Shown piece after piece: positions 9,080 through 42,040 of a stretch of DNA of 64,000 bases; position 1 is the stretch's first letter, and each line of letters begins with the position of its first letter. Position numbers and translations under genes: made by a program. The stretch comes from Asterias amurensis (Eukaryota > Echinodermata > Asteroidea > Forcipulatida > Asteriidae). The DNA is taken from positions 23,145,202 to 23,209,201 of the forward strand of contig NC_092653.1 of the NCBI RefSeq assembly GCF_032118995.1. Direction: 5' to 3'. Under the pieces are notes generated by a model. It was not told the origin of the DNA and ran no database searches. It saw only the letters and a list, made by a program, of their open reading frames with translations.

Positions 9080-12000
9080 CCCCATGTGTCAATCTATTTC
9101 TCGATTACTACGGACACGTTTTGCAATATGCCTGCAATTTCAAAGAGGTGAGACTAACCTTGTTTTGTCATTTAGTTGTCCAGTTCTAACTGCATCTTAA
9201 TTGTGAGAGAAATAAATTGCAAACCACAATTCTCTGCTCTTTTAATATTTCCTCTGCTTACCAGTTATCACGCTATTATGCCTTTTTCTTTGAATTGGGA
9301 AAAAAATAATGATGCCATATATCAACCGATGCCCTAATTATCTTCATTTGTTAATTCGAAGTGTGCAAACATGTATTAAAACTTGATGGACATTGAAATG
9401 TTCATACCACACACCGATCTTGGATGACTTCAACTGGCCCCATTTGTTTTGAGTTTTTCCTGTTTTCACGGCAAACGAGAAAGTATGGTTTCCCGGTGAA
9501 GCCATACATGGAAGAAACATCTGCAGTGACTACAAGTGTTCTTTGAGACTCTGTTACAAAATAAAAATCTCCAAAAATATTAGAAAATTATATAAGGCAC
9601 AGGCTTCTTTAAGCCTCGGTATTTTTTTTCAAGAATGCTCAGCAAAACATTCAGTCACATGATTTTGATCATCATGATTGTGAATTGAAATAGCGTTTGA
9701 TGAAACTTTTTTCGGTGGGCAAATATTTTTATATGGCCTCAACATTATGACATATTATTTGTGTACCTTGTAGAAATGCCTAAAATACCAAACTTTTTGC
9801 ATTTACAAGTGCAAATGACCAGTGGAGCCTTACGTGTTTCTAAGTTTTGGTCAAAGAAGAGGAGACTCTTTGCTTGGCATATAAAACCACACAATTTTTA
9901 TCTAGGGACTGTTAACATCGCGCACAGAGAGGTAAAAGATTTGCAACGATAATAGGGACACCTCGAAAACAGGACCTCCTACGATTTATACTTTTTATTT
10001 TACTTGATTGCACTGCAGGTTGCACACACATGACACATGCACATCTTTATTTCTTGTGTACATATTGTGGCACCCACTGACCGCTGAGCACACAAACCGT
10101 CCACCGTCGGCAGCCCGAGCCGCACCCTTGTGTAGTACTAGATGCTGAATAGGCTTTGACAAGTAGCTGAATTATTGTTATTTAATGTTTGCTACATGAT
10201 GCAGTGCGCATCCGACCTAGCGCCGTTTTGATAATTCTTGGGGCCTGCTCTTATTTTTGTTACGTTTCTAGGGACTACTATACTAGCTGGAGGTTTTCAA
10301 CCAGGTTTCAGAAAAAGTATTTTAGTTTTGTTGTATTTTGATGGAACAGTGACGTCTCTGAATGTTTAAAATTTTCTTTTCTTTTTTCAACAGTGGAAAA
10401 ACCACTTGTCTGCACTCACTGCAGACAGTCTTCTTCTCGTGTTACAACAAAAGAGGGCGCAGTTCACAATGGCCTTCGTCAAGATGACCCATTTTCCACA
10501 AATGGAGTTGAAGAGAACAAGGAAAAAACCCACAGTGGAATTCCTATCAGTTCAGAGAAAGGTAGGAATTGTTAGTTTGCCACTCTTAATAACACATAAT
10601 GCAGGAGCCTCAGTGTGCAGAGTCTTAATGCTCTGCTCATTGGGGCTTCACAGTTTTGCACACTTTCATAATTTCTCGTTAAATTCATAATCTAAATACC
10701 ATACTTATATTCAACTCAAGTCACAAACTGTACAAACTGAGTGTCCCAAAGACTCCAAAAACATGCATTCAGTCCAAGTTTCTATGACCTGATCAGATTG
10801 TCATTTTTGACTTGAGGTCCTTCTTGACTTCTCCATTATCTATCAGTTGTAGATCTTGATTTAGGGTGGAAAATCCACAAAACCATTTACTTGACAGGAA
10901 CTGTTTTTAAAAGACTAGAATCAAATAAGAAAACAAGTTAACCAACTTTTTATTTAAGCAAGCACCAAGACATTTCAAGTAAAAATTTGTGTATTATTCA
11001 TTGCTCAATACAATTGTTCCAATTTGTTCTTGGCAGCTCTCCAGGAGATGTTATTGCTCAAGAAGCCCAATCTGCCAGACGATTCACGAGTCCTAAATGT
11101 CGCCATCATCGGGTCACCCAACGCTGGCAAATCAACACTTATCAATCGACTCATGGGTCAAAGGGTAAGGGTTAAAACTCTACTGGTTCCCTCGGGGTGG
11201 TAGGTTGATACTTGTCCAAGAGCTGTATATTTGAGAGAAATTGGACATAGAGGGACTAACTTCAGTGGACCACACTCCAAGCACGGCTCGCACAGGCCAA
11301 AGCAGTTACGATCTTAAGGATCTTTAACAACCTGGTTGACATCCCACTCACATTTCTGACACCAACCATTGCTCTGAGCAGAGTCGTTCTTACAGAACAG
11401 GGGTTTACTAACACTCATTCTTTCTCAACAGCATTTGAACAATCTCTGTGAAGGCATCAACTGCGCATCTCTTGCGAGTCTTAAACAGGGTATAGTCAGT
11501 CCAGCAACAGTCCAGTGAATGTACTTTGCAACACATTCACTGTTTACACACCCATCTGCATTATATATCCCCACCCTAGCATGCGCACATCAACCAAGGT
11601 ACATAATACACCAGATTGTTGACTGTAATCTCATGGAAGAAGAACAAGACCTACTTTCACCCATGAGAATAATATTATAACCCAAGAGTCAGAGGTCTTC
11701 ACTGAAAAAGAAACGGTATTGATATTTTTTCACATCAGGGTCTCTCCTTTCTTTCAGATTTGTTCGGTCTCAAGTAAAGTCCACACAACGCGCTCTACTG
11801 CCCTGGCTGTTCTCACAAGAAATAATACACAAATTGTGAGTAATTTCTGTACTATCTAATAAGTCTGATAATACTGTTGCTTTGGGGATGCTTTCAGTTG
11901 GAACCCTATTCAACACTTTTGAATGTGTACCCTCCAAATGTCTAGATACTTTTTTGGCTGAGAAAACAACAAAAAACTGTCACAGTATTTTCATTAAGAA

Positions 12001-15958: not shown

Positions 15959-16065
15959 ACTGTGTCATTTTAAAGTGCTTTATCACACTCAAAGTCATCT
16001 CAAAAGCCTCTTAAGATTTTGTACTAGGCACTTCAAGCTATTTTAGAAATATGAGAATGAAAAAT

Positions 16066-16240
16066 CGTAACTTCGGTGTGATCCCTGGCTACAGGACAGC
16101 AACCCCCAGACCCCCAGCAACCCCCAGACAAAGATATTGATAAAATAGAGAAACAGCCAAAATAGGGTTAGATAGCTCAGTTGGTTGAGCGCCGGTGCGT
16201 TAATCTGGAAGTCATTGGTTTGAGTCCCATCCGGAGTAAC
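16066..16240 (+). repeat. tRNA-Asn-like repeat, left outer arm
   Basis: An ACCCCCAGA-type repeat (16095-16132) is followed by a tRNA-like sequence at about 16166-16238: D-arm GCTCAGTTGGTTGAGC, GTT at the anticodon position, and T-arm GGTTTGAGTCC. The anticodon stem is mismatched and U33 is replaced by C, so it is unlikely to be a working tRNA gene. An inverted copy lies at 20720-20880. Confidence 0.65.
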
Positions 16241-16439
16241 TATAGAATACAGGTACACTTGGAGCTCTATCTGTGCCTCCGCGGAGGCGGAGTCGCGGTC
16301 ACGTACGTTTTAAGTAACTTGGTCATAGCATGGAGGCAGAAAGCTGGTCGTACTATACTACTTGATTGTATTGAGTGCGATTGATGAATACAACAGATAA
16401 AATGTTAGGGTCGTAGGGAGTCAAAGTGTGACGTGAGTG

Positions 16440-16790
16440 GTGAGGTAGGTGAAGCAGCCGATAGAGGGCGTTTTAGGAAGACGTGCATTTGATGCAATCG
16501 AGAAGACGGGGAAGCTGGAGGCGCGGAGTCGCGGTGTTGACAATGGCCGATAGAGGGCGTCTTTAGGAAGACGAGCATATGATGCAATCGTGAAGATGGA
16601 GAAGGTGGAGGCGCGGAGTCGCGGTGTTGGCAATGGTCGATAGAGGGCGTTTTTAGGAAGACGGGCATTTGATGCAATCGTGAAGACGGGGAAGGTGGAG
16701 GCGCGGTGTGGACAATGGCCGATAGAGGGCGTCTTTGGGAAGACGAGCATATGATGCAATCGTGAAGAAGGGGAAGGTGGAGGCGCGGAG
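16440..16790 (+). repeat. Minisatellite, unit about 90 bp, four copies
   Basis: GATAGAGGGCG recurs near 16460, 16549, 16639 and 16720. Each is followed by a GAAGACG, GATGCAATCG, AAGACGGGGAAG and GGAGGCGCGG series. The unit is often 90 bp, a multiple of three, so a 142-residue minus-strand frame stays open by chance. It is not a gene. Confidence 0.85.
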
Positions 16791-16791
16791 G

Positions 16792-17290
16792 GGCTTTCTT
16801 TCCCTTTTTTAAATAATCCTCTAATGGGGTCAAGTGTATGAGGGCAATATTAATAATTGTACGGAATTCGGGCTTTCCATTTCCCTTTTGTTTAAATCCT
16901 CTAATAAGGTCAAATGTATGAGGGCAATATTAATTATTGTACGGAATTCGGGCTTTCTTTCCCTTTTTTAAATAATCCTCTATTGGGGTCAAGTGTATTA
17001 GGGCAATATTAATTATTGTACGGAATTCAGGCTTTCTTTCCCTTTTCTTAAATAATCCTCTATTGGGGTCAAGTGTATTAGGGCAATATTAATTATTGTA
17101 CGGAATTCGGGCTTTCTTTCCCTTTTTTAAATAATCCTCTAATGTATTAGGATTCGGCCTTTAATTATTTCCCTTTTGGAAATAATCCTCTTTTGGGGTA
17201 ATATGTAGTACGGCAATATTAATAGTTATTAATTATTTGTACGGAGTTCCCATAATTATTTAAATAATCATCTAACGGTCTTGTGAGTTA
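16792..17290 (+). repeat. Minisatellite, unit about 79 bp, five to six copies
   Basis: Units begin GGCTTTCTTTCCCTTTTTTA near 16792, 16871, 16951, 17030 and 17109. Each contains AATAATCCTCTA, GGGGTCAAGTGTAT, GGGCAATATTAAT and TTGTACGGAATTC. Copies from 17150 on are degenerate. The array directly abuts the 90-bp minisatellite. Confidence 0.85.
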
Positions 17291-17514
17291 TCGTATAAAA
17301 TAAATTGACATCACAGCGCAGTTGTGTATTTTCGACCCTAATGAGGGCGCTGTTGTGCATCTTTCAGAGTGCCCCCTAGGTTCGAATATTTATAGTTAAG
17401 CAACAGAGCGCGACCTCAACTCCAGTGTACTGTGTACGTATGAACGTCACCGCGACTCCGTCTCCGCGGAAGCGCAGTGGAAGCTTCGAAGTGTACCTGC
17501 ATTCTATAGTTGTG

Positions 17515-18125
17515 CCTCCCATCCTATCCCAGTAAATATTTCTTTGTTCGAACCCCAAATCATTTACCCAGTCAGTTTCCCTTGTAGAGTAGGGTAAAAC
17601 TCACAGAGTCACTCTTTATAGCAATCATTACATGTTTGAGTTTAGCCAAGGCCACCAGCCTTCTATCTTGCCATTGTCGTCTCTCCTGTAGTTGATCAAA
17701 GTGAAATCTTGCAGCACTTTCTGCAAAAATTGCATCACTTTTTCTACCTTGAAGGTTGGAGATGGTCCAAATGATGAAGTGACTCTGTTGATGATAGTGG
17801 CACCGTGACGTTCCATGTGTAGTTGGCTGTACCTGAACAAGGTAAACATTTATCAGTGTCAGATTATTAACCAGAAAGCCTTGATTTTTTTAAAGACTTT
17901 TGCATATTTTGTTCACGAGGAGGGCCAAAAAGTATGTCTTGTGTTTTTGTTGTTGAAAGTTCTTACCCTCGGCGTTGAGATGAATTACTTTAAGATGGTC
18001 CAAAAACACACACACTGTACCCCACATATTATGAGGAAACACGCTAAATTAATATCAATAACTGATGCTATTTAAAATTTTGAAAAAAGGAATCTAGCCC
18101 CCCAGTTACGTGGTCTAATTAAGAC
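17515..18125 (-). repeat. Middle foldback arm, left copy
   Basis: Reverse complement of 20108-20735 with moderate divergence. On the minus strand at 17849-17628 it carries a decayed version of the small reading frame described for the right arm (MERHGAT, then FGPSPTFKV). The start overlaps a remnant of the tRNA-Asn-like repeat tail (CCCAGTAAATATTTCTTTG). Confidence 0.75.
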
Positions 18126-18249
18126 CCATAGTATAAGATTGAGAACTAGAGGGCACACTGGTGATGCTGCTTGCACATACAAATACGACGGGACCACAAT
18201 GTCACAAGGAGACATGCGCGCCATTTTATATGAGCGTTTGAATATTATT

Positions 18250-18700
18250 AAGTACACTTGGGAGAGTGTGTGTTGATAACGCTACGCGATGCTGTTTTGT
18301 CAACTTGCAAAATGGCCACACAGGGCCATGTGAACACAAGCTATCATGGCTGTTTTGTCAGTTTACAAAATGGCTGCATGAGCGCATGCCAGACCGCATT
18401 GTAGGCTTAGGGTGTGAGCCTTCCCGTGGTGACGTCAGTGCACCTCGGGCCAGCCCCAAGAGAGCCCCACTTCCTTGTGGACCCTATCATCACTTGGGGC
18501 TAACCCGAGGTGCACTGACGTAACGACGAGAAGGCTCACGTGATGATGCATCTGGGGTTTTTTTCCAGGTGATGGAGCGTGGGTAAACATTTGCGCACGT
18601 TCGTACTGGAAAACAAAATAGGCGACTTTTCCAGGACGAACGTTGGGTAGTTCTGTGCCCACCTTCGTCCTGGAAAAAAATAAAACACCCAACATCGGGG
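18250..18700. repeat. Cluster of small foldbacks
   Basis: Three hairpin-type structures stand in a row. At 18283-18390, TGCTGTTTTGTCA and CAAAATGGC recur as direct copies with internal symmetry. At 18414-18540, GTGAGCCTTC and TGCACCTCGGGCCAGCCCCA match CTTGGGGCTAACCCGAGGTG and GAAGGCTCAC inverted. At 18590-18690, TTCGTACTGGAAAA, TTTTCCAGGACGAACGTTGGG and CTTCGTCCTGGAAAA alternate in orientation. No coding sequence. Confidence 0.65.
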
Positions 18701-18730
18701 TCGACCAATGGAAGCTAAACGAACGCACCC

Positions 18731-19275
18731 TATATAACTCTATGTTTTGACCCCTCTGCCTAACCACAATGCATTACGGTTCTGAATCGCGATAAAAGAT
18801 AAACCTCCGACCTTCAATTCAAGGTATTATTGCCATAATTGGATATCTGCCTGCCGAGTGAGCGCAGCGCAGTGACAGTGTTTGCTTACCTTCCTTGCGA
18901 TCAATTCTAGTTTGGGATTCCCTCGTGAAGAGATGGTAGTTTGTACCCACAGAAATGGCGAAAGTTCTGCAAAAAAGTTCAAATTCAAAGTTCCAGAACT
19001 GAAGTTGAGCTGACCTGCTAGCTTAGTGGTCTTCGTGTTGACACATGCATGACATGTGGACTGTGTTTATTATTATCACACCAACACAAAACTGAGGGCG
19101 CTATGCTGGTTTAACGGTGGTATTTTGTTTGCAGGTGAAAAATTAACGGTTGTGTTAAATACCGCCCTCTTACGTGTGGACCACTGCTGCTTTGTGATTG
19201 GTCTGTTACGCGTAAGTTAATAACCAAGCTTTGTGATTGGTCTGTTAAGCGTAAGTTAATAACCAAATGGTCTGG
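18731..19275. repeat. Inner foldback arm, left copy
   Basis: Inverted relative to 19395-19945. It starts with TATATAACTCTATGTTTTGA and includes GGGATTCCCTCGTGAAGAG, GAGGGCGCTATGCTGG and two copies of a 36-40 bp module with TTGTGATTGGTCTGTTA and GTAAGTTAATAACCAA. Further module copies fill the centre to 19395. Confidence 0.8.
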
Positions 19276-19394
19276 TAATACCGCCCTCTTACGTGTGGAC
19301 AACTGCTTCTTTGTGATTGGTCAGTTACGCGCAAGTTGACAAAACAGCATCGCTTTATGATTGGTCTGTTAAGCGTAAGTTAATAACCAAATGG

Positions 19395-19945
19395 CCTGGT
19401 TATTAACTTACGCGCAACAGACCAATCATAAAGCTTGGTTATTAACTTACGCGTAACAGACCAATCATAATGCAGCAGTTGTCCACACGTAAGAGGGCGG
19501 TATTTAACACAACCGTTAATTTTTCACCCGCAAACAAAATACCACCGTTAAACCAGCATAGCGCCCTCAGTTTTTTGTGTTGGTGCAATAATTAAAAACA
19601 CAGTCCACATGTTATACATGTCAACACGAAGACCACACTAAGCTAGCAGATCAGCTCAACTTCAGTTTTGAAATTTTGAATTCGTACATAATTTCTTCAC
19701 TTTTTGGGCAGAACTTTCGCCATTTATGTGGTTACAAACTACCATCTCTTCACGAGGGAATCCCAAACTAGAATTGATCGCAAGAAAGGTAAGCAAACAC
19801 TGTCACCGCGCTGAGCTCACTCGGTAGGCAGAGATCCAATATTAAATACCTTTTTGAATGAAGGGTCGAAAGTTTATCTTTTATCGCGATTCAGAACCGC
19901 AATGCATTGTGGGTAGGCAGAGGGGTCAAAACATGGAGTTATATA
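19395..19945. repeat. Inner foldback arm, right copy
   Basis: Contains TTATTAACTTACGCG and CAGACCAATCATAA modules at the centre, then AGAGGGCGGTATTTAACACA, CAGCATAGCGCCCTCAG, CTCTTCACGAGGGAATCCC and finally CATGGAGTTATATA. All pair with the left arm in reverse order. Identity to the left arm looks high by eye, with scattered differences. Confidence 0.8.
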
Positions 19946-20014
19946 TTATAAAAACTAGAGGGCTCACTGGAGTGCATTTTGTTGGCGACCCCAACCAGAA
20001 ACATTGGTGATCGG

Positions 20015-20103
20015 TTAAAGCCATTGGACCCTTTCAGTAAACAGTATTGTCCAAGGCCCACACTTCTTGTATCACAACTTCTATATCAAATAACAAACCT
20101 AAA
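20015..20103 (+). mobile_element. 5' piece of a TTAA-type MITE
   Basis: TTAAAGCCATTGGACCCTTT, then GTAAACAGTATTGTCCAAGG and CACACTTCTTGTATCACAAC, matches the first 90 bp of the complete element at 24707-25078. It is inserted between the inner and middle right arms of the foldback. Confidence 0.7.
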
Positions 20104-20107
20104 CCAG

Positions 20108-20735
20108 TCTTAAGACTTAATTAGACCACGTAACTGGGGGGCTAGATTCCTTTTTTCAAAATTTTTAATAGCATCAGTTATTGATGTTAATTTAGCATGT
20201 TTCCTCATAATATGTGGGGTACAGTGTATGTGTTTTTGGACCATCTTAAAGTAATTCATCTCAACTCCGAGGGTAAGAACTATCATTATCAACAACAAAA
20301 AGACAAGACAGACTTTTTGGCCCTCCTCGTGAACAAGATATGCAAAAGCCTTTAAAAAAATCAAGGCTTTCTGGTTACTCGTTCAGGTACAGCCAACTTC
20401 ATGGAACGTCACGGTGCCACTTTTAACAGAGTCGCTTCATCATTTGGACCATCTCCAACCTTCAAGGTAAAAAAAAGTGGTGCAAGTTTTGCAGAAAGTG
20501 CTGCAAGACTTCAATTTGATCAACTAGTACTACAGGAGAGACAACAATGGCAAGATAGAAGGCTGGTGGCTTTGGCTAAACTCAAACATGTCTTGAATGC
20601 TATAAAGAGTGACTTTTTGTGAGTTTTACCCTTTACTCCTCAAGGGAAACTGACTGGTTTAACTGTTTAAATGATTTGGGGTTCGAACAAAGAAATGTTT
20701 ACTGGGATAGGATGGGACTCAAACCAATGACTTCC
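20108..20735 (+). repeat. Middle foldback arm, right copy, with a 73-codon frame
   Basis: Inverted copy of 17515-18125. A frame at 20401-20622 begins MERHGATFNRVASSFGPSPT and has a basic, helix-prone C-terminal half (LQERQQWQDRRLVALAKLKH). The left-arm copy of this frame is disrupted. I do not recognise the protein. It could be a remnant of a transposon gene or a captured host exon, and there is no sign that it is expressed. Confidence 0.7.
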
Positions 20736-20904
20736 GGATTAACGCGCTTGGCGCTCAACCAACTGAGCTATCTAACCCTATTTTGGCTGTTTCTCTATTT
20801 TGTCAATATCTTTGTCTGGGGGTTGCTGGGGGTCTGGGGGTTGCTGTCCTGTAGCCAGGGATCACACAAAAGTTACGATACCTGGGAAGGGGCAGCCAGG
20901 GGAT

Positions 20905-21060
20905 CGTCAACATAGGGCTAGATAGCTCAGTTGGTAGAGCACAGGCATGTTAATCCGGAGGTCGTTGGTTCGAGTCCCACTCTAGTAAATTTTAATTTGT
21001 TCACCCCAAATCATTTACAACATTTACCCAGTCAGTTTCCTTTGTGGTGTATAATGTAAA
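20905..21060 (+). repeat. Third tRNA-Asn-like repeat
   Basis: GATAGCTCAGTTGGTAGAGC, GTT at the anticodon position with a preceding T, and GGTTCGAGTCCCAC make this the best-preserved of the tRNA-like copies. The anticodon stem and acceptor ends still pair poorly. The sequence after it (GTTCACCCCAAATCATTTAC, then CCCAGTCAGTTTCC) matches what follows the other copies. This supports a dispersed tRNA-derived SINE rather than a tRNA gene. Confidence 0.55.
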
Positions 21061-21180
21061 CATCTGAAATAAAAAGTTGAACCTCCTTCAAAGGTAATCC
21101 CCTGGCTGCCGCTTCCCAGTTTGTGCGGTGTCTTAATTTGGGTGTGATCCCTGGCTGCACTGCAGTAAACGGTTGTACCC

Positions 21181-21204
21181 ACCCCCCCCCCCCCCCCCCC
21201 CCCC
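21181..21204 (+). repeat. Poly-C tract
   Basis: An almost pure run of about two dozen C. A similar run lies at about 21829-21847 and a shorter one at about 24240-24252. On the other strand these are G runs that could form quadruplexes. Lengths may be assembly-sensitive. Confidence 0.8.
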
Positions 21205-21439
21205 GGAAAGATTTGTCAATCTTATTCTAAATAAATAAAAAGTTTAGTAAATTAACCTGTTTTCAATGGATCTGAATGAATATCCTTGAAAAAAGCAGAA
21301 ATGAGATGAACAAACATTAAACGAAATTCGTCAGATTATTATTAATAAAAGTTAGCTCCATATGGTGGTAGAACATCATTTTTATTTCCTATCGCAATTA
21401 CAAAATCATGCCGCACGGAAATTCTCCGTTTGGTTGTAC

Positions 21440-21552
21440 GGTCTGAGTTGACCTGGGTACGAGTTGACTTAGGTACGAGTTGACTTGGGTACAATATTTC
21501 GGGTACGAGTTGACTTGGGTACGTTGTTGACTTGGGTACGAGTTGACCCGTT
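21440..21552 (+). repeat. 16-bp tandem repeat
   Basis: Six or so imperfect copies of GAGTTGACTTGGGTAC. They encode nothing recognisable, although a short minus-strand frame reads through as NVPKSTRT-type repeats. Confidence 0.8.
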
Positions 21553-22212
21553 TTGTTTTCGAAGACTAAAAACTGATAACACTAAACGGGCATACTCGAA
21601 CTCATACTGGGGTGTTACGGAAGCATTAAAGTGGAAAGAGGTAGAAAGAGAAAGACAGAAAGCACAAAAAAGCATGGGATGAACAAAAGGTTGTTTTACT
21701 TTAGTTTATCATTACAAGAAAAACTCGATCCTTTATGTCTCAAAACTTTGCCAAAAATCCTTACCGCTAACTTGCAATAGCGCCACCTACGTTAGTGTAA
21801 AACTTTTGGGGTAATCATCATTCCCCCTCCCCCCCCCCCCCCCCCCCAATTAAAAAAAATACTCTGGGACATGTTGGTCGATTTCTTTGTCCTGTAGAAC
21901 AATTAAAATGTCTAAATAATAACAATATAAATCAATGGAGTTATAAAGAATATGATAACCCCAGGGTAAACCAGTTTGAAAGCACATGTTTTAGCAGACA
22001 ACATTAATTATCGGAATTTACCCCCACTACTGCGGCCCATTTGGGAAACCCGCCTCGCGCATGCGTTTTACCTACTTAGGATGTCTGGTTTCTGCCTCAA
22101 ACGAGTTAGCTTTTTACACACTAAATGAACTTCCCTCTTCCGCGTGACACAAAGCGCTTGTGCGGAAACCAGACTATAGTGTACGGCGTTGGTTTTCTTA
22201 TACCATTTCAGC

Positions 22213-25200
22213 ATGGCGTCCAACGTAGATTCTCGTGAGTATAAAACCACCTAAATAGATCGTTTTTAGTTTAAGTTTTTAAATAAAATTCAAGTTTTCC
22301 ATAAGATGATGTTGTAAGGCACAAATTGGTTAGCAAAAGGCATTAGTGCACCTCGAAGTTAAGAAGAATGGGACATTTTTAAACGCATAGTTGAGTTTTG
22401 TTCGGCAAGTAAAAATATTCTGCAGCAGCAGCAGTGTCTTTCAATGAAGTGACAAACTCGACCATCAAAGAATGGTTGTTTAAATCAAAGCGTGCTCATT
22501 TAAACCAGTTCTTTAAACACTTCTATTTCCATATAAGGGGTGGACATTTATTGAAGTAAAATAAAGGGTATGCAAGCAGTTATTCAGTTTGTAATAACCC
22601 AGACAAAAATTAAATGTTTTTTTTTTTTTTAGCCAGGTTTTTTGGGGAGAAAAAATTATTTAAAGAGCTCCGTATCTCGCCACAAATCTTTACTCAATTT
22701 TACCAAGGGGAATATCACATGAGTAATGTAAATTAGATACTTATTTATTTCATTAAAAATAAATAGGTGGCAGGATGCAGAAATTTGTCCAACATAAATT
22801 TTGCAGTGTAGGTGGCACTGTTGCTGTGTCAATAGAGGGCGCTTTACGATATGCCTGGAAATGATTTTGACATACCCTGCCACCACTTTATAATTGTTGA
22901 CTCGGTTTTTCCTTTAAAATTTGAGAAAATACAATTTTTTTTATATTAAATAATGGGTCCTACTAAAAGCCGAAAACAAGCCAAAAACAAGTCCAGAGCG
23001 CCACCAACACGCCGCCAACAAGTTAAAAAGACCTCAAAAATGGTAAATAAACCATATATATTTTAGAACTAGGTGTGTTTTGTAATAAAAACATAAATTT
23101 AATGGAAGAACTTCAAGAAAAGTGTGAATTTTTAACCAAAGAAAAAACGGTCGGACGCCATCTTGGCTTAAAATTGTGTTTGGGCCAGTCCATTATGATG
23201 CGGGTGAGTCAGATATAGCAATAGATGGCGGGCGTCATGCACTGTGCATACTGCAGTGAAGGTCTTCACATGAAGCCCTCTGTTGTTGACAAGTGCTAAA
23301 TCTACCCGTATCATAATGGTCGGGTCCTACTAAAAGCCGACAACAAGCCGACAACGCCGACAACAAGTCCAGAGCGCCGCCAACACGCCGCCAACAAGTT
23401 TTAAATACCTCCAAAATGGCCAATAAACCATAGATATATTAGAACTATGTATGTTCTGTAATATAAACATAAATTTAATGGAAAAACTTTACGAAAAGTG
23501 TGAATTTTTAACCAGAAAAAAACCCTTAACTTTGACGGAAAACGGTCGGACGCCATCTTGGCTTAAAATCGTGTTTGGACCAGTCCATTATGATGCGGGT
23601 AAGTCAGATTTAGCAATAGAGGGCGGGCGTCATGCACTGTGCACACTGCAGTGAAGGTCTTCACATGAAGCCCGCCCTCTGTTGTTGATAAGTGCTAAAT
23701 CTACCCGTATCATAATGGTCTGGTCCAAACACGGTTTTTAAGCCAAGATGGCGTCCGACCGCTTTCCGTGCAAGTGAAGTTTTTCTGTTTAAAAAATACA
23801 CACTTTTCGTGAAGTTTTCCATTAAATTTATGTTTATATTACAGAACACATATAGTTCTAATATATCTATGGTTTATTGGCCATTTTGGAGGTATTTAAA
23901 ACTTGTTGGCGGCGTGTTGGCGGCGCTCTGGACTTGTTGTCGGCTTTTAGTAGGACCGTAATGGTCTGGTCCAAACACGCTTTTTAAGCCAAGATGGCTT
24001 TCCGTGCAAGTAGAGTTTTTTCATGGTTAAAAATTCACACTTATTGTGAAGTTTTGACATTAACTTTATGTTTATATTACAGAACACATATAGTTCTAAT
24101 ATATTAATGGTTTATTGGCCATTTTTGAGGTAATTAAAACTTGTTGGCGGCGGTGTTCTGGACTTGTTGTCGGCTTGTTGTCGGCTTTTAGTAGGACCGC
24201 CAATAATGAATGAATAAGTGATTGCAAGGTCTGAAGCTCCCCCCCCCCCCCCAAAAAAAAAGTCTCAAATTTCCGATTGGGGAAAAACTGTATGTTTAAT
24301 TTTTTTTCACCGATAGATTCAGAGTGGAATTCATTGTTAAGCAAAAGTACTTAAAAGTTAATTGATTTATTTGCAGAGTATACTGGTTACGGAACCCCGC
24401 AGCAGGCCCAACAGGGGTGAGTTTCTATGTTGTTAAAAATTTGCACTACAAAATACATTTTTTAGCTTTTAACCGAAGAGCGAAGTTAGATAACCATGAA
24501 GCCCGGTTCATACTCCCTGCTAATGAATTGCAATTTTTGACGTCACAGTCTTTTTTGTATCTGTGTACGTTACGCAGGAGTTGAGCAAATTTCAACTGAA
24601 GCTAATTATTTGTTCCGAACTTGTGACGTTAAAATTTGTATTGCATTCGTGGGAAGTATGAACCAAGCCTTATAACTGAAGTATTTGAATGTCATTGATA
24701 AATTGCTTAAAGCCATTGGACACTTTTGGTAAACAGTATCGTCCAAGGCCCACACTTCGTGAATCACGACTTCTATATAAAATAACAAACCTGTGAAAAT
24801 TTAGGCTCAATCAGTCATTGGTTTCCAGAGAAAATAACAGGAAAACCCACCCTTGTTTCCGTACTTTTCGCCATGTCATGACATGTGTTTAAAATAAATC
24901 CGTAATTTTTGGCATCGAGAATTGATATTGTTTTAATGTGTTCTTAAAAAGTAAAGCATTTCATGGAGTAATATTTCAAGAGGTTTTTCACCATTACCTT
25001 CTGTAAACCCTGTAAGTTGTTTGTAAATCTGTGAACTTTAATTTTTTTGTCTGTACCGAAAGTGTCCAATGGCTTTAAATAAAGAAAATGCAGTTTTGTG
25101 ACTGTAAATTTAACAGAGCTTGTTCTTAGTGTATGGAGCATAGTCTCGAAAAACAGTTGCTGCAAGATCTTAAAATCAATACAAGTTATTTAAGTATCAA

Positions 25201-34200: not shown

Positions 34201-37200
34201 TTTGGCGCTGTCTGTTTAGGTACAGTGAAACTTAAACAATAACATAATTTTGTAGTCTTGCAAAATCTGGGATACGCGTGTTCTTTTAATATTAGTATTA
34301 AACTTTGATCTTAAAAAGTTACTGTGCAAAAAAATGCCATAACAACATGGCCCAGGCGTTTTTTATTTTTTAAGGGAACAATTGTGCGTGGCATTTGTAC
34401 AGTTTGTAAAAGGTATGGTGAAACTTAATGATGGGGTGTCGTGGTCTGGGAATGTGGAGTGTAATTTACAGAATGTGGGTTCAAATCTTGGCCATGTAAG
34501 TGGAGACGCTTGTGTCTTAAGAGCAAGACACTTAATCATAATTGCATCTCTCCAATCCGGAATACAGATCAGTACCAGCAAGAGTAGGGGTTGAACTTAA
34601 GATGGTTGTAGTCCAACATTCTCAGTCATTTAATGCCAAGGAAACCGGGTATGAACATCAGCCTGATAAGCCATATTACCTTGGGATAGACTTGACTCTT
34701 TCTTTTTACATGAAACTTAAAACATTAGCATAGATGTAATTACAACGAAGGTTTATTTTTAGTCTTGCTTCTCTCAAGTCTGTGATAAATAGAAGACTGT
34801 GCATGTACACTTCAAAGGGGTAGTTATGTGATTTTTGTCATGTGTAGTCTTCAGAAAACATGCAACATTGTCGTGCGACGAATACCTAGAAGGAAGAACT
34901 TCTTTTTTTTTTCACTGAAAGAAAGATCTTTCCTTAATTGTGGAGGGTTAAAAAGCCGCATCATTTTTTCAAAGAGGTGGTTTGAGTTTTGACGGTGTTC
35001 GTCTTTTTTAAAAGGGCAACGTTGTTGTAATATTCATTAGTGACCGCATAAGGTGTAACGCGGTAATTTTGTATATATTAATATTTTGATGAATAGCCGA
35101 CAACATTTTTTATTTGTCCTTACTGCGTGACCCATTAATATAATTCCGATGGGCCTGGGTACATAGCCCGTGCAATTGAAAGGTTTAAAATATTTGGTCA
35201 GCTTGGTTGAACATTTGACCAAGTTTTGGAATGTGAAACCGTTTTCACTTTTTTTACGCGGGTGTTCATGTCAGTTTAATCAACTTCCTTAACAGTGTGG
35301 GATACGCACCCAAGCCCGTTAGTCTGTTCATGTAAAGGCAAGGCACCAGGGCAATAACCAAGGGCATGGGGCAATTGCTTCATTATCTTTAAGTACACAT
35401 AAAGGGCCTGGGCATCGTCTTATTAGCACATTTATTATTATTTTTAATGAAGAACATTCTGTCCTGAGAATTAAAAACGTAAGCGTGGAAGAGAGCTGCC
35501 AGTGTCAATGCATGCCTAATGCTTCATTTTTGAAAGGTCACAAGGGCATTTTCTCCTCGGTAAAGGGCACCCTAAAGGGAAATTATTTATTTCTACTGTA
35601 TCATTTCAAGGGCATCGAAGCATCGGCCAGGGGGCATGGAGGCAACTGCCCTCGTTACCTCCTGGATATACCAGGCCTGTTCAAGGACGAATGTTCGGCC
35701 TCCTTTGTAGGATTTTGGGGTACTCAAACTTCCTTAAGCTTTTCGCATAGCTACTTGTATGAGCTATGTTGAGGACCATATCATATTGAAAAATTTTCCC
35801 TTATCGTTCCGTCGCATCGCATTTGTATTTTTGGGGTTTTCTTAATGCTAGGTTTTGGTTGACGGACCTAAAGCTTTATCTCCTTTGAACTGGATACTGA
35901 TGACATTTATTCAAAGTCATTTTAATTCGTGCAGGTCTTAAAATTGAAGAAATCCACCGATAGACTACAGGTTATTGTAGCTCAGACATTTTGCCGGACT
36001 GTTAATACTTTAATAATACCGAATATATTTCTTGTTGCTTAAAGTTAAGGTTTGAACTTGAAATCTGCAGTGTGTTTAATTTGGTTTTGAAAAATATGTG
36101 TGTTGGGAATATACTAGACTGCTTGACTTGCATGTAAATGGTGACGTTAATTGCCAATTGCTAAATAAACTTTGGGTATTCCACTACTGATTATATTGAG
36201 CTCAGTCGTACGAGTTTACTCTTGATCTAAAAAATAATGACATAAAAATGGGTAAACTGGATTTGTCTGATAGGAACCGTCAACCCTTTACCAGCTTTCC
36301 TTCTGCTTTTTTATGCAAAAACAATTTAATTAATGTGCACAAATAAAATGGTTTTGGGGTTATTTATGTTTTGTTAGATACTGGACGTGGTGGAAGCACT
36401 GGTGGCGACAGTGGTGGGAGTGGAGGCAGCATGGGCAGCAGTGGAGGAAGCTCCTTTGGAAGTGGTAAGCTTAAATTTTAATTATGTTTGCCTTTGATGA
36501 AGCATCTGAAGTCTTGGGGACAATTGCTGTTTTAGATGGGATTTCAGAGCTGTCGACTCCCCCTGTTTCTGGAATCTGTCCAAGTTCTGATGAAAAAAAA
36601 GAGGCGTTAAACACTGTTCTTTTCAGAAACAACACTCCTCAAAAACGATATTCACATGGTGCTACGCAAACCTCTTTTAGTCCCTAATTATGCAAACTAG
36701 TATGTAGCATGTATTTCTTAAAGGCAGTGGACACTATTGGTATTTAGCTGTTGATAGTATAAAACATTGTGAGAACTGGCTCCTTCTAAACTGACATAGT
36801 TTTCGAGAACGAAGTAATTTTCCACGAATTTGATTTCGAGACTTCACATTTAGAATTTGAGGTTTTGAAATCAAGCATCTGAAAGCACACAACTTTAGGT
36901 GACAAGGGTGGTTTTTCTTTCATTATTATCTTGCAGCGCCGATGACAGATGGAGCTCAAATTTACACAGGTTTATTTTGTGTAGAGCTCGTAATAAAATC
37001 CAGTACACTTATTATTGGAAGAAAGGGGTTTGTCCTTTTCTTTCTTGAGTTCAAAGCTATGAATTAGTGATAATGATAATGTGTTTTGACTTTACAGGAG
37101 AGCCAAAGAAGGATCTGTCTGTAGACACCATCTTTGTCAGCGGCCTTGGAGAGGTATCTGAAGATCAATTAGTGGACTACTTCAGCAAGATTGGTATTGT

Positions 37201-40200
37201 TAAGGTAAGTTCAAAATTTCCCTAGATAATTTTTTGATTCTGTTGATTTGAGAACTGCACGAGTCTTGTGATCATGCTTTACATGGGATCAGGCAGAGCA
37301 CCTTAATAATTGGTCCCACATTTATGGTGTTGAGTTTGTATGCTATATATAAACTGGTTATTATAGCTGGTTATGTAGTTACAAAATTTAATCGGACATT
37401 AAGTGACACAATCATTAATCCTTTCAGCATGAATTTTACTGTATTGCATCTGCGGTAGACAATATGCTGCAATGCATCTTGTGAGGCGAGTCTAGTCGCG
37501 TAGTTAATATACATGTTGCCAGGCTTAAACTGGCGCTGTGTAAATTTTATCAAATGCAAATTAATAACGATCATGCTCTTTGGAGTGGAAAGTTGTAAAG
37601 TTCAACATTGCCTTATAATATGTTTTCAAAATGTCTAAAAACTTCACATTTTGTTAACCAGCTTGACAAGAGGACCGGCAAGCACAAGATCTTCATCTAC
37701 AAGAACAAGCAGACCAACCAGCAGACTGGAGAGGCCACAGTCACCTATGATGACCCACCCTCTGCTAAAGCTGCCATTGATTGGTTCAATGGTAAGTAGT
37801 GTAATGCAGAGATTTATGAGATGATATTGGTGACATCTTTACATAGAAGTGAGATGATGTAATGGTCAACAGGGGGGGGAGTAAGGGTGGGTGGTCAGGA
37901 ATGTGAGTGGTGGCTAATTACTGGACATGGACTGACAGAGGATATGGGCCACCTGTTGAGGTGTGAACAACTATTTTGGAATTCTAGAGATAACCATGGG
38001 AATTATCCTTACATTAGCTTACACAAAACTATTCTTTACCCTTGTCATATTTTTGTTTTTGTCCTGAATATAGACCTTTATTCACGATGTGGCCATCTTG
38101 ATTGTATTCCATTCCATTCCAACTCATTGTAAACCAAACTGAGGCTGGACGAAATAATAGTCTGTGCCATGTTTGCGCAATGAATGTTAGCATTCATTAC
38201 TGTTATGGAAACAGGGAACATGACCAAGATGGTGACAGCGTGACAAAGGTCTATAAGAGTTGGACAGTGTTTTCACAATATTTATGGGAAATCTGTCCTT
38301 ATTTGCTGCTACTAAAGCAGTTTCCCTCCCCCATTTGTGCCATATATTAAGATACTGTGTTTGTTGATTTGTTTTTGTAGGGAAAGATTTCTTTGGCCAC
38401 ACCATTAAGGTTGAGTTTGCGACAGTAAGATCAAACTTCGGGATGAACTTCCGGGGACGTGGAGGCCCAGGTGGAGGTGGAATGGGTAAGGCAGAGTACT
38501 TATCATTTTCGCTTCTTGGAATAAACATTGTCACCAAGACGGTGATGTGAAACTTCTCTGTGCATGTGATGTCATCTAGTGTAATTGAATTTTTCTACTG
38601 TTAAAGCATGTTGAACTTAAAAATTTTGTGTTTAAAGGCACTTGGTATATCCCCACATATACATTAAATAAAAAATTTGTGGAAATATTGGTCATCGAGG
38701 TTGCAAGAAAATAATGGGGAAAAAACACCATTGTTGTACATATTTGTGTGCTTTCTGATGCCTACAAAAACAATAAAAGGCCTGAAGTCTTTTGTTGTTT
38801 GAATAAGAAATTGCCTCTTTCTCAAAAACTATGTTACTTCAGAGGAGCCGTTTCTTACAATAATTTATACTATCAACAGCCATTGCTCCTTACCAATAGT
38901 TCCAGTTCATTATAAAAAATTTGTTTTCTTCTGATTTCAGGCGGTGGTGGCGGCGGATTCCGAGGTCGCGGTGGTGGACGTGATAGTGATGGAGGTGGAT
39001 TCCGTGGAGGTCGTGGTGGTGACAGGGGTGGTGGTGGAAGTATGGGTGGTGGTGGTGGCGGCGGTGCCAGGCAAGGGGATTGGATTTGCACAGATAAGTA
39101 AGTACTGAGATGCAAATTGTTGAGTCAATTGATGAGCGGTTAAGATCACCAAATTCAAACTCTCGTGTTTCTGATCAGCAGAGTGTGGGTTCCAATCCCA
39201 ATAAAGCCGTGACACTTGTGTCCTTAAGCAAGACACTTAGCTATTGCTTCGTCCTTCGGATGGGACATAAGGCCGTTGGTTACGTGTGTTGTGTAACGCA
39301 TGTAAAAGAACCCAGTGCACTTATCGAAAAGAGAAGGGGTTCGCCCCGGTGTTCCTGGCTGTTGCTGCTGTATGCGCCGTAGCACCTTGTAAAAACCCTT
39401 ATAAGGTGCTAACTAATTGGGTCTCAAATTTCACCACTGCAATCTTTCTGAAAGTTTGTTTATACTTGGCGCCTTGAGTACCTTGTTTGGTAGATACGTG
39501 CGCTATATAAGACTTTGATATTATTATTACTATGTTAAAGGGTCTCTCTCTGCGCGCGACATACGCAGTGAAAACACAGCTTGGTCTTTAACCTGCATTT
39601 TTGGAGCAGCGCGTACTACATGCGTTGGTTCGAACATCAGCAGATTAAGCCGGAGCCAAAGCCGAGGTTTGAGAAAGCTACATTAAAGGCATCAAGATCA
39701 TGTTTCATTGTGCAACTAATTGCATTGATGTCTTCTCAGTATAAAAATGTCTGCACATTCTCAATAATTTTGAATAAATTTGTGTGCAAATTGTGCACTC
39801 TGTAAGTTTCAGAGAACGCATACAGATTTTCCAACCTTGGGTCCTGAATGTCTAATTTTAATATTATATATATATATATATATATTTTTTTTCCAGTGGC
39901 TGTAGCAATCACAACTTTGCCCGTCGTGACAAGTGCAACATGTGTGGAAGCCCAAGACCAGCTGATGGTAAGTGATCAGTAAAAAGCAGTGCAAATTAAT
40001 TTGGTTTGCACAAAGTTTTGTAAGGATAAAGAAAACAATTGGGGTGGGGTGCATTCTGATGAAATATTTTACAATACCTGTGTTTAAAAGTGAAACAATT
40101 TATTTGTAATCGATGGCCTTTTAGGACGGCTTATTCAATTTGAATCTTACTGAGACTACCTGATCCTGCAGAAATTCCTTTTAAATTAAACTTATCTCCT

Positions 40201-40754
40201 GGAATTACACAGGGAGGCCATGGCCTCTGTTGCCCTGACCTTGGCCTTGGTGCCCTTTCAAAACTTTTATAGACTTAAAGATTTTCCAATGGTAGTGCCC
40301 TTGACAGAATAAAAATGGCATTAGGCTCTCCAAGATGATATTCCAGGCCTGTCCCTTTTCTCAAGTGTACAAAACCCAGTGCAGTTAAATAATTTGAAAT
40401 GATTGGTCTTAATGATGAGTAGGAGGGTTAATTTGTGGATAGAGTAGGAGGGTTAATATGTGGATTGGTATTTATTATTCATTTTTATTCTTTAACATAG
40501 GAGGTATGCCCGCCCCAGGTGGTGGTGGAGGTGGATTTGGAGACCGTGGAGGTAGAGGAGGCGGTGGTGGCTTCCGTGGACGTGGTGGCATGGATCGTGG
40601 ACGTGGAGGCGGCGGTATGGACCGTGGGCGCGGTGGTGGTGGCTTTGCACCCAGAGGACGCGGTGGAGACAGGGGAGGTGGCCGAGGGGGCTTCAACCCA
40701 CGTGGACGGGGTGGTCCACCAGATGGCCGTAGGGACAGATTCCGTCCGTACTAA
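22213..40754 (+). CDS. FUS: FET-family RNA-binding protein (FUS/EWSR1/TAF15 type)
   Basis: Fourteen exons: 22213-22234, 24377-24416, 25219-25339, 25812-25989, 26372-26629, 27064-27280, 31296-31354, 36378-36464, 37098-37204, 37662-37791, 38381-38485, 38941-39097, 39897-39967, 40501-40754. All junctions are GT-AG and in phase; 601 aa. FET proteins are nuclear RNA/DNA-binding factors in transcription and splicing that phase-separate. Residues 1-206 are a Y/Q/S/T/A/P-rich prion-like region, EWSR1-like in texture, starting MASN as in FUS. Residues 207-327 are G/S-rich and include GGFNKFG. The RRM lies at about 336-425 ([15 protein letters not shown], then [20 protein letters not shown]). RGG boxes follow. 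A RanBP2 zinc finger (CX4CX10CX2C, from GDWIC) is at about 483-515. The C-terminus is RGG plus a DRFRPY PY-NLS. It is probably the single pre-duplication FET gene, so the symbol is approximate. Confidence 0.95.
22949..24200. mobile_element. Palindrome of palindromes in FET intron 1
   Basis: Four related copies of one arm: two forward (22949-23315, 23318-about 23690), two inverted (about 23695-23957, 23960-24200). The inner pair makes a complete foldback element bounded by GGTCCTACTAAAAGCCGACA and its inverse at 23957. The outer pair repeats the pattern. Arms contain GCCGCCAACAAGTT, CATAAATTTAATGGAA, CGGACGCCATCTTGGC and CATTATGATGCGGGT. No coding capacity. It fills most of the 2.1-kb intron. 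Confidence 0.8.
24707..25078. mobile_element. Complete TTAA-type MITE in FET intron 2
   Basis: Both ends are TTAAAGCCATTGGACACTTT and its exact inverse, giving 20-bp terminal repeats that begin with TTAA, the target site used by piggyBac-type elements. Total about 370 bp, no coding sequence. The piggyBac link is inferred from the TTAA ends only. Confidence 0.85.
25362..25494. mobile_element. CAGGCCTG-type MITE in FET intron 3
   Basis: Starts CAGGCCTGGAATTGC and ends CATTCCAGCCTG. The interior has GGCCATGGCCTCCTTTGCCC and GGTGTCCCCTTCAAAAG, shared with copies at 33553, 35508, 40198, 57201 and others. About 130 bp, non-coding. Confidence 0.75.
27281..31295 (+). other. FET intron 6 (4.0 kb)
   Basis: Bounded by GTGAGT and a CTAG acceptor. 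It holds no alternative exon I can support, although T-rich tracts are abundant and a SINE body fragment lies at 30290-30395. It is far longer than FET introns 1-5 (about 0.4-2.1 kb). Together with intron 7 it isolates one 59-nt exon. Confidence 0.6.
30290..30395 (+). repeat. SINE body fragment in FET intron 6
   Basis: GTGATTTGCCTGTG, then a AACTTGGGAAAGT-like stretch and ACAGTGCTTAGAACAC, aligns with the body of the SINE at 48644-48800. The tRNA-like head is missing. Confidence 0.5.
32582..32856. mobile_element. Complete MITE with CAGGGGTCGAAATT ends
   Basis: The ends are CAGGGGTCGAAATTG and TAATTTCGACCCCTG, 14-bp perfect terminal inverted repeats. The interior has GGGCTAC/GCTAGCCC words in both orientations. 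The flanks are nearly identical (TGTGTTT and TGTTTTT), compatible with a 7-8 bp target duplication such as hAT elements make. CAGGG-type ends also fit hAT. No transposase, about 275 bp. Confidence 0.85.
33553..33731. mobile_element. CAGGCCTG-family MITE
   Basis: Contains GGGCAAGGGCACCAAGGCAT, GTAAAGGGCACCCTA and GGAGGCAATCGCCTTCGTTG, ending GGGCCTGG. Shares order and words with the copy at 35508-35679. Confidence 0.7.
34440..34640 (+). repeat. tRNA-derived SINE
   Basis: A-box-like GTGTCGTGGTCTGGGAATG and B-box GTGGGTTCAAATCTTG are followed by TTAAGAGCAAGACACTTAAT, a tail motif shared with the SINEs at 4826 and 39117. Confidence 0.6.
35330..35411. mobile_element. CAGGCCTG-family MITE, fragment
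   Basis: GGCACCAGGGCAATAACCAA, GGGCAATTGCTTC and a GGGCCTGGGC end match the distal half of the family. Confidence 0.55.
35508..35679. mobile_element. CAGGCCTG-family MITE
   Basis: Begins ATGCATGCCTAATGCTTCAT, contains GTAAAGGGCACCCTA and GGAGGCAACTGCCCTCGTTA and ends ACCAGGCCTG. About 170 bp. Confidence 0.7.
36718..36990 (+). mobile_element. TTAA-type MITE, 3' end not found
   Basis: TTAAAGGCAGTGGACACTAT at the left end, then TTGATAGTATAAAACATTGT, GAAGTAATTTTCCACGAATT and CATCTGAAAGCACACAAC, as in the complete copy at 42041-42426. The right terminal repeat is not visible. Lies in FET intron 8. Confidence 0.75.
38632..38900 (-). mobile_element. TTAA-type MITE next to FET exon 12
   Basis: TTAAAGGCACTTGGTATATC at the left and ATACTATCAACAGCCATTGC at the right. 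The latter is the reverse complement of the TTGATAGTAT segment of the family, so this copy is inverted relative to 36718 and 42041. It ends about 40 bp before the exon 12 acceptor and leaves little room for the branch point and pyrimidine tract. Confidence 0.6.
39117..39530 (+). repeat. SINE with Deu-like central domain
   Basis: The head has GAGCGGTTAAG and GTGGGTTCCAATCCC, spaced as in a tRNA with a long variable arm (Ser/Leu type). The body contains AAAAGAACCCAGTGCACTTA, TCGAAAAGAGAAGGGGTTCG and CCCCGGTGTTCCTGGCT, which I recognise as the conserved core of deuterostome Deu-domain SINEs. The tail GCGCTATATAAGACTTTGAT plus ATT repeats looks like an L2/CR1-type LINE tail. About 410 bp, apparently full length, in FET intron 12. 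Confidence 0.7.
39865..39885 (+). repeat. TA dinucleotide run
   Basis: About ten TA repeats directly before the pyrimidine tract and acceptor of FET exon 13. Confidence 0.9.
40198..40351. mobile_element. CAGGCCTG-family MITE in FET intron 13
   Basis: CCTGGAATTACACAGG at the left, GGCCATGGCCTCTGTTGCCC inside, and ATATTCCAGGCCTG at the right. The interior matches the copy at 25362. A 26-bp tandem duplication (GAGTAGGAGGGTTAAT) follows at about 40417-40465, close to the exon 14 acceptor. Confidence 0.75.
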
Positions 40755-40885
40755 GGTAGTCAGTGACCAAACTCCTCTGTGTACAAAGTCTCTTAATCAT
40801 GTGCCACTAGGTTTCTTTCTTGCACTTTAAGGTAACGGAGTGTAGATTAGTTAACACTATCTCTGGAACTCCAAAGAGTTTTGTA

Positions 40886-40891
40886 AATAAA
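40886..40891 (+). terminator. Proximal FET poly(A) signal candidate
   Basis: AATAAA 132 nt after the FET stop codon. A second AATAAA at 41974-41979 would give a 3' UTR of about 1.2 kb. Which is used cannot be told from sequence. Confidence 0.45.
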
Positions 40892-41973
40892 ATGCTCCAG
40901 TGCAGTAAACAAACTTTACATCTCTTTTAAAGCATTTTAGGTGTACGTAGGTCAAAGAATATTCACTAAACCAACGAGACTGAAAAACAAGGCCGCATCT
41001 GTTTTGCGATTCGACTAGCCACCATAGCATACAAAGCAAGTCAGTCACATATCATGGTATATGTAACGCTAAAGATACAACTTCTGAATAACTTGTTAAA
41101 AAACCCCTTTGCATCAGAGTGGACTCTCTATTGTGATAGCATGGCATTGTTGTTTATAAGCAAGGAAATAATGCTGCCTCAAAGTCTATGGTGGCTAGGC
41201 AAAATAGACTGCATCTGTACAGAGTTTAGTAACTTTTTGATAATACTATTTGATGGAGACGGGCCTTAACTAAAGGATTATACCTTGTATTCTTGGCCAT
41301 CTTGCCAACGTAAGGCATTATGTGGTCCCCAGTCCTGTACCCTTTATTGCCTACTTGAACAGTTTACATTCTGTGTTGTGCACAGTTGTGTACTAGTATG
41401 CTTGTGTTAGAAGCAACATTTTTTTCAAACACAAGGCTCTTTGTTTTTAATGTTTAAGTTTAATTTTAAGTCGTCGTTAAAATCTTCCATCCATAATGGG
41501 GAACATCATTGTCTTGGGCCTTGATTTTGAAAGGGTAAACTAAGCTGGAAGTAATCATGTCAAAACAATATGTTAGCACGTTTTCCCAAACCCACCAGTT
41601 CTTTGATCCAATTAACATGATGCATCACAACAATAATCTGGGTTGCACTATTTTGGGAGTAAATGTCTATGTGTGTTATACAGAAGGGTAGTGTCACTTA
41701 TGGTGATGCTGTTATTACATGTTGGTTAAAAAAATTGCAAGCCTGGCACAGATGCCATGTCTAAAGTACATAGAAGAGGTCAATAGAAAATGTGTGGATA
41801 CATGGTAAGGTCGACAGAAAAAAACATAATTTTTTATGAGATGTAAATGTTTCTTGGGGTGTGTGTGGAAGGGGCGGGTTTAACGCAAAGCATTTCCCTG
41901 GAAATAGTATTTGAAGACGGGTTTCAGTGAATTGTTGTTTAAGTCATTTTAGATGTTACTATCAAACTGTTTT

Positions 41974-41979
41974 AATAAA
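41974..41979 (+). terminator. Distal FET poly(A) signal candidate
   Basis: AATAAA followed by TGTCCTGTGT, a TG-rich stretch of the kind found downstream of cleavage sites. No coding sequence intervenes between the stop codon and this point. Confidence 0.5.
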
Positions 41980-42040
41980 TTGTCCTGTGTCGGAATACTA
42001 CATACCCTTTCAATTGTATTTTATTTGAATGTGTTATTGT

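What the first reader, a model, noticed from the sequence alone, without database searches (positions are those of the whole stretch)
16066..20880. A nested, three-tier inverted repeat of almost 5 kb between ERAL1 and the FET gene
Three pairs of arms nest symmetrically around about 19.35 kb: 16066-16225/20720-20880, 17515-18125/20108-20735 and 18731-19275/19395-19945. The outer arms carry tRNA-Asn-like sequence, the middle arms a small reading frame, and the inner arms tandem modules. Only the left half carries two minisatellites and a block of small foldbacks. The arm order is palindromic throughout, which favours one composite foldback element, or repeated inverted duplication, over chance insertions. 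I recognise no transposase.
Basis: seen in the sequence. Interest (0 to 1): 0.7.

Follow-up and report, generated by a model that had tools for sequence, protein, structure and literature searches.

The report
Foldback transposon carrying lambda-crystallin gene pieces
The nested palindrome is a damaged copy of a dispersed foldback-type DNA repeat whose two arms each carry a copied end of a host enzyme gene (lambda-crystallin, CRYL1), later broken up by other insertions.

Summary
The palindrome is real (arms 84-96% identical) and not a local accident. Of 14 fetched regions with the middle arm, 7 repeat the arm order as inverted pairs; 4 lie in two head-to-tail clusters on contig C2. The "small reading frame" of the middle arms is the 3' end of host lambda-crystallin (CRYL1) with its last intron: a DNA-level capture. 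Two CRYL1 loci on contig C14 match it.

The copy is truncated: other copies run further out. Their outer domain is a 16-bp minisatellite of another dispersed family ("fam-M"; 942 and 984 bp in the two clean copies, both with an 8-bp duplication), seen here at 21264-21555. The same palindrome/fam-M junction recurs at three loci for one end, and at two (plus one cut copy) for the other.

Best reading: a non-autonomous foldback transposon with minisatellite ends, palindromic cargo and captured CRYL1 exons, amplified in one burst. No transposase, and no palindrome with both ends and a target duplication, was found. New variant of a known kind.

The parts
16064..16232 (-). outer left arm (tRNA-Asn-like), truncated at its outer side
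   Evidence: 95.9% inverted match to 20710-20879; other copies run on outward
16233..17516 (+). separate 1,284-bp insertion carrying both left minisatellites; TIR GGnnnAACTATAGAATrCAGGTACACTT; duplication TCCCATCC at 16225-16232 and 17517-17524; the right arm is the empty site
   Evidence: own family with 57 candidates, 40 scored, 38 of 41 matches starting at 16233
17517..18123 (-). middle left arm with captured CRYL1 3' end
   Evidence: 86.3% inverted match; host match
17601..17832 (-). CRYL1-derived last exon, left copy, frame-shifted
18125..18730 (.). block of small foldbacks/MITE-like repeats between middle and inner left arms; 18125-18416 is also found in arms of other copies
18731..19945 (.). 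inner palindrome, centre near 19338, with tandem GATTGG/CCAATC modules (motif seen by eye)
   Evidence: 59 candidates in the genome, 40 scored
20116..20717 (+). middle right arm
20227..20272 (+). CRYL1-derived penultimate exon end (...HLNAEG), followed by retained intron 20273-20396
   Evidence: alignment to host gene
20397..20622 (+). CRYL1-derived last exon, right copy, open frame to the stop
20710..20879 (+). outer right arm
20625..21060 (.). tRNA-Asn-derived foldback (arms 79%), a more abundant dispersed repeat included in each arm; tRNA-Asn called at 20916-20988
20880..21263 (+). further outer-arm sequence shared with other copies, missing on the left in this copy
21264..21555 (-). fam-M terminal domain: 16-bp minisatellite 21445-21547 and terminus A (outermost base 21555); the flanking 8-mer TTTTCGAA occurs once in the window

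Best explanation
It is a degraded copy of a non-autonomous foldback DNA transposon. The intact form is inferred to be: minisatellite terminal domain (A end) - cargo palindrome - minisatellite terminal domain (B end). Each cargo arm runs from the centre outward as: CCAAT-rich inner module, splice-site-like exon, captured CRYL1 3' end with its intron, tRNA-Asn-derived foldback, outer arm. Inferred history: (1) the 3' end of CRYL1 was copied once, as DNA, into a repeat unit; (2) one lineage stayed as head-to-tail arrays on C2; (3) another was made palindromic, joined to fam-M ends and dispersed in one burst by a transposase supplied in trans; (4) the window copy then lost its left end, was cut on the right, and took a 1.28-kb insertion in its left arm. 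Shown: dispersal, arm order, CRYL1 origin, shared junctions, the target duplications of two fam-M copies, the separate left insertion. Inferred: palindrome formation by strand switching or hairpin repair, and mobilisation in trans.
For: Dispersal: 14 of 20 fetched regions carry the middle arm and 7 of these are inverted pairs in palindromic order. CRYL1: phmmer to two lambda-crystallin structures, E 5e-5 and 1.1e-4; host loci on C14; long alignments of host copy B across exon, intron and last exon, 72-80% (window left arm 79.2% over 384 columns), and last exon up to 89.5% over 200 columns to copy A. Single origin and burst: near-zero internal branches among dispersed arms; the split of dispersed arms from arrays plus host has support 0.91. 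Terminal domain: two clean fam-M copies with duplications TTTTTAGG and GTGTATAG; same A-side junction in L035, L038, L053; same B-side junction in L036, L037 and, cut after one unit, L034; L038 and L053 also share a MITE at the same fam-M site.
Against: No fetched palindrome shows both an A and a B end of its own, and none shows a target duplication. L032 has a nearly complete fam-M copy beside it, with both ends but unlike flanking 8-mers, so its B end is no evidence for the model. The window junction (21264) and L033's junction lie at other cargo positions. L032 runs on into a further inner module, as the arrays do. No transposase was found: 12 MULE-domain matches, the nearest about 45 kb from a listed terminus.
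Confidence: 0.68

Rival explanations
1. A repeated local gene-like unit (as in the C2 arrays) was spread by segmental duplication and inverted duplication, without a transposase; fam-M ends are ordinary insertions nearby.
For: C2 arrays are head-to-tail units; L032 is partly array-like and has a nearly complete fam-M copy beside it; no target duplication on any palindrome.
Against: The same cargo/fam-M junctions at three loci for one end and two or three for the other, each with one fam-M end only in the fetched stretch; near-zero internal branches among the dispersed arms.
Confidence: 0.22
2. An inverted duplication formed at this place only, with no mobility.
For: Outer arms here are closer to each other (96.4%) than to their next nearest copies (94-95%).
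Against: Same arm order at 7 other fetched loci.
Confidence: 0.02
3. Assembly artefact: the right arms are a misassembled copy of the left.
For: None found.
Against: Arms differ by 4-16%, each has its own indels, the left has an insertion with target duplication that the right lacks, and other loci have the same structure.
Confidence: 0.02
4. A functional divergent gene pair with a bidirectional promoter in the centre, encoding a CRYL1-tail protein.
For: Conserved splice-like sequence (AAGGTA in 23 of 26 inner-exon rows); 13 of 24 last exons open, three of them judged on part of the exon.
Against: 11 of 24 broken; array-versus-dispersed consensus dN 0.051, dS 0.061 over 65 codons, near neutral; no start exon shown.
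Confidence: 0.06

Closest known systems
Foldback transposons: Drosophila FB and Tetris, sea urchin TU (PMC4079207: passages and one section seen; TU and FB details recalled)
   Same: Long terminal inverted repeats built partly of tandem repeats, variable middle, 8-10 bp duplications in Tetris and 8 bp here, no transposase found, repeats amplified as tandem arrays in Tetris
   Different: Here the 16-bp repeat domain is outermost and the middle is itself a palindrome that carries captured host exons
Pack-MULEs and Rehavkus/Mutator elements (PMC6446971: passages seen)
   Same: Capture of host gene fragments; Rehavkus has a minisatellite before its 3' TIR
   Different: 9-bp duplications are given there for Rehavkus, 8 bp here in the clear case; no MULE transposase linked; here the fragment lies in both arms
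Galileo and other P-superfamily foldback elements (recalled)
   Same: Long TIRs, non-autonomous copies, 7-8 bp duplications
   Different: Termini differ from those recalled for P elements; no transposase link was tested

Membership tests
Foldback (FB/TU/Tetris-like) transposon | long terminal inverted repeats containing tandem repeats | tested here: met
   fam-M arms of 16-bp repeats, 144-158 columns, 85-89%; five palindrome-family arms plus one cut copy joined to a fam-M end at the shared junctions
Foldback (FB/TU/Tetris-like) transposon | dispersed copies | tested here: met
Foldback (FB/TU/Tetris-like) transposon | target site duplication at a full copy | tested here: inconclusive
   both clean fam-M copies have one; none found for a palindromic copy
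Foldback (FB/TU/Tetris-like) transposon | sequence homology to described TU, FB or Tetris | not testable with these tools
   no library of eukaryote repeats held
Mutator/MULE (Pack-MULE) | MULE transposase sharing the termini | tested here: inconclusive
   24 of 24 candidates scored, 12 PF10551 matches, nearest about 45 kb from a listed terminus; an absent autonomous copy cannot be excluded
Mutator/MULE (Pack-MULE) | 9-bp target duplication | tested here: inconclusive
   8 bp in L055; in L056 one further base is ambiguous, 8 or 9; only two copies
hAT (left insertion 16233-17516) | 8-bp target duplication and inverted ends | tested here: met
   TCCCATCC on both sides, empty site in the right arm; inverted ends
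hAT (left insertion 16233-17516) | hAT transposase match | not tested
   no hAT search was run; not filed as hAT

The most novel reading that the evidence does not exclude
A foldback transposon has turned a host metabolic gene's 3' end into a long inverted repeat with a promoter-like centre. Transcripts reading through a copy would fold into long double-stranded RNA matching CRYL1 (longest run identical to a host last exon 22-38 bases in all 24 arms compared, 30 and 22 in the window's two arms), so the family could be a natural hairpin-RNA silencer of its donor gene, with the C2 arrays close to the founding locus.
Probability: 0.1. Interest if true: 0.75.

Novelty: new variant of a known kind. 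Interest (0 to 1): 0.5.

Why it matters
Foldback elements are long known, but their transposases are often missing (so for Tetris, PMC4079207). This family combines, in one genome, minisatellite-ended small relatives with clean duplications, palindromes carrying a host-gene capture in both arms, and a sister tandem array. That makes the steps capture, palindrome formation, dispersal and array formation directly testable, and host CRYL1 gives the root for the tree.

Tried and rejected
Not answered: the superfamily of the transposase. A 14.6-kb B...A pair on C8 looked like a possible autonomous element, but its flanking 8-mers differ (CATGTAGA and CTCCTATA). Early readings dropped: another frame of the middle arm (no Pfam match); a protein joining the inner exon to the CRYL1 exon (the inner module has no C14 match among the 40 of 59 candidates scored). 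L032's B end was counted at first as the element's own and then dropped. Rfam microRNA matches at 19350-19437 lie far below their gathering scores and only reflect the hairpin. Codon-position variation in the middle arms could not be counted as meant: the anchor was not found and the three figures printed (0.131-0.135) are not for the exon. In one search the cryB exon was cut wrongly; searches use the corrected cut. In one search one A site (C20) was entered with the wrong strand; it was unpaired either way. Of 26 last-exon matches, two short ones (L039, L041) were left out of the 24 counted.

Bias to note: the 20 regions were chosen from the outer-arm hits, so the share with CRYL1 is not a genome-wide share.

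Papers: a search for TU elements with two other terms found no paper; the listings (six of 280 shown in the last) show no description of this family or of a CRYL1 capture. PMC4079207, PMC6431247 and PMC6446971 were seen as passages, plus one section of the first; the rest as listings.
Full report
OBSERVATION. Self-comparison of 15.8-21.3 kb returns three nested inverted pairs close to the stated positions: 16064-16232/20710-20879 at 95.9%, 17517-18123/20116-20717 at 86.3%, and an inner palindrome 18731-19945 at 84.2%. Of 24 overlapping 5-kb stretches of the window, 7 hold an inverted repeat of 100 columns or more; those over 265 columns occur only here and in a second palindrome further right (22956-24198).

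LEFT-HALF MINISATELLITES. Both arrays (16457-16790, 16791-17144) lie in a 1,284-bp stretch, 16233-17516, with its own inverted ends (16238-16304/17444-17511) and the direct repeat TCCCATCC on both sides. The right arm holds the uninterrupted sequence, which serves as the empty site. A probe of its left end finds 57 candidates in the genome, 40 scored; 38 of the 41 listed matches start exactly at 16233. So this is a later insertion into the left arm only.

DISPERSED COPIES. The outer arm has 439 first-look candidates, 40 scored, because it includes a common tRNA-Asn-derived foldback. The CRYL1-type middle arm is rarer: 30 candidates, all 30 scored, including the window's two arms and two host loci. 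The inner module has 59 candidates, 40 scored. Of 20 regions fetched, chosen from the hits (L031-L044) carry the middle arm; 6 (L045-L050) match only the tRNA-like part, L046 with a further weak match to 18142-18390. Seven of the 14 (L031-L035, L038, L039) are inverted pairs with the window's arm order; L036, L037 and L040 show one CRYL1 arm; L041 and L042-L044 are two head-to-tail arrays on C2. L054 has an inner palindrome next to the tRNA-like foldback; no CRYL1 arm was seen in its 2.1 kb.

THE READING FRAME IS CRYL1. The consensus of the middle arms gives an open last exon that matches solved lambda-crystallins (3f3s E 5e-5; 3ado E 1.1e-4). A lambda-crystallin query finds two host loci on C14. 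The long alignments of host copy B run across the penultimate exon end, the intron and the last exon at 72-80% (window left arm 79.2% over 384 columns; the right arm aligns in two pieces, 72.5% and 82.9%); the last exon alone is up to 89.5% identical to copy A, over 200 columns. An intron is present, so the copy was made from DNA. Of 24 last exons compared, 13 are open and 11 broken (three of the open ones are partial, and two short matches were left out); the window's right copy is open, the left frame-shifted. Between the consensus of 18 dispersed and of 4 array copies dN is 0.051 and dS 0.061 over 65 codons, close to neutral.

HISTORY. Trees of the middle, inner and outer segments have near-zero internal branches among dispersed arms, with nearest-neighbour identities of about 91-99% without gaps. 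Some arms group by locus (L033; the window's outer arms), others do not. On the last exon, rooted with host genes, the split between dispersed arms and arrays plus host has support 0.91; the two array groups join with only 0.74. Of 18 dispersed arms 13 share a derived TTCACTTTGA where both host genes and all 6 array copies have TTCCACTTGA; 5 carry other variants. I read this as one capture, then arrays on one branch and a burst of palindromes on the other.

TRUE ENDS. In 18 of 18 arm ends that match 21205-21268 the sequence runs on beyond it, whereas the window copy stops at 16064 on the left and meets another repeat at 21264 on the right. That repeat ("fam-M") has 373 candidates, 40 scored. 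Two clean copies, 942 and 984 bp, have arms of 16-bp repeats and the duplications TTTTTAGG (8 bp) and GTGTATAG (8 bp, one further base ambiguous). Terminus searches with up to two mismatches found 98 A and 80 B sites; 58 face-to-face pairs, of which 57 are A/B, and 56 of those 57 are 154-1,981 bp long. Of 16 family loci scanned (window, L031-L044, L053) seven hold a fam-M terminus within three substitutions. In six (window, L033, L036, L037, L038, L053) it is a single terminus facing outward; the seventh, L032, has a nearly complete fam-M copy with both ends and unlike flanking 8-mers, and I dropped it. L035, L038 and L053 share one A-side junction (...CTAGACTGATT then fam-M); L036 and L037 share a B-side junction (...TATAGTTGGCAGGA then the minisatellite), and L034 has the same junction cut after one unit. 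The two junctions lie about 27 bases apart in the cargo. L038 and L053 also carry a small MITE at the same fam-M site. A chance fam-M insertion would normally bring both ends; one end each, at a shared junction, speaks for one mobile unit.

MECHANISM. The parsimonious reading is a fam-M-type foldback element whose interior was replaced by a palindromic cargo and which moved with a transposase supplied in trans. Palindrome formation by strand switching or hairpin repair is inference. I saw no locus with both ends of its own and a duplication, and no transposase; 12 MULE-domain matches lie 45 kb or more from listed termini, and a 14.6-kb A/B pair is not one insertion. The window and L033 have other junctions, and L032 runs on into a further inner module like the arrays, so the unit is not uniform.

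PLACING IT. Foldback elements with tandem repeats in their TIRs are known from Drosophila (FB, Tetris) and sea urchin; Tetris has 8-10 bp duplications, no autonomous copy found, and supplied repeats for satellite arrays (PMC4079207). Mutator-like elements tend to acquire gene fragments, and Rehavkus has a minisatellite before its 3' TIR and 9-bp duplications (PMC6446971). The combination of outer minisatellite, palindromic cargo and captured host exons in both arms is, as far as these searches reach, a new variant. The window may be echinoderm; I did not test this. The names ERAL1 and FET were not fully tested: a GTPase-domain match at 10958-11203 fits the ERAL1 side, and the FET-side pieces tried had no Pfam match.

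Noticed in passing
window 22956-24198: A second nested palindrome (608 columns at 87%, with further arms) on the FET side; no match to this element was found in it.
   Followed up: partly
window 24707-25082: A dispersed repeat that also sits inside units of the C2 array (L041, 82-87%); its first 86 bases match 20015-20100 in the element at 91%.
   Followed up: no
window 20916-20988: A tRNA-Asn(GTT) call inside a repeat; tRNA-Asn calls recur in 14 of 21 sequences scanned (window region and L031-L050), so tRNA counts in this genome may be inflated.
   Followed up: partly
window 18560-18730: A small palindromic repeat with ends like GGGTGCGTTCGTTTAGCTTC recurs in other copies: at one shared fam-M site in L038 and L053, elsewhere in L044.
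   Followed up: partly
window 36747-42380: Weak inverted repeats (68-70%, 204-263 columns) further right.
   Followed up: no
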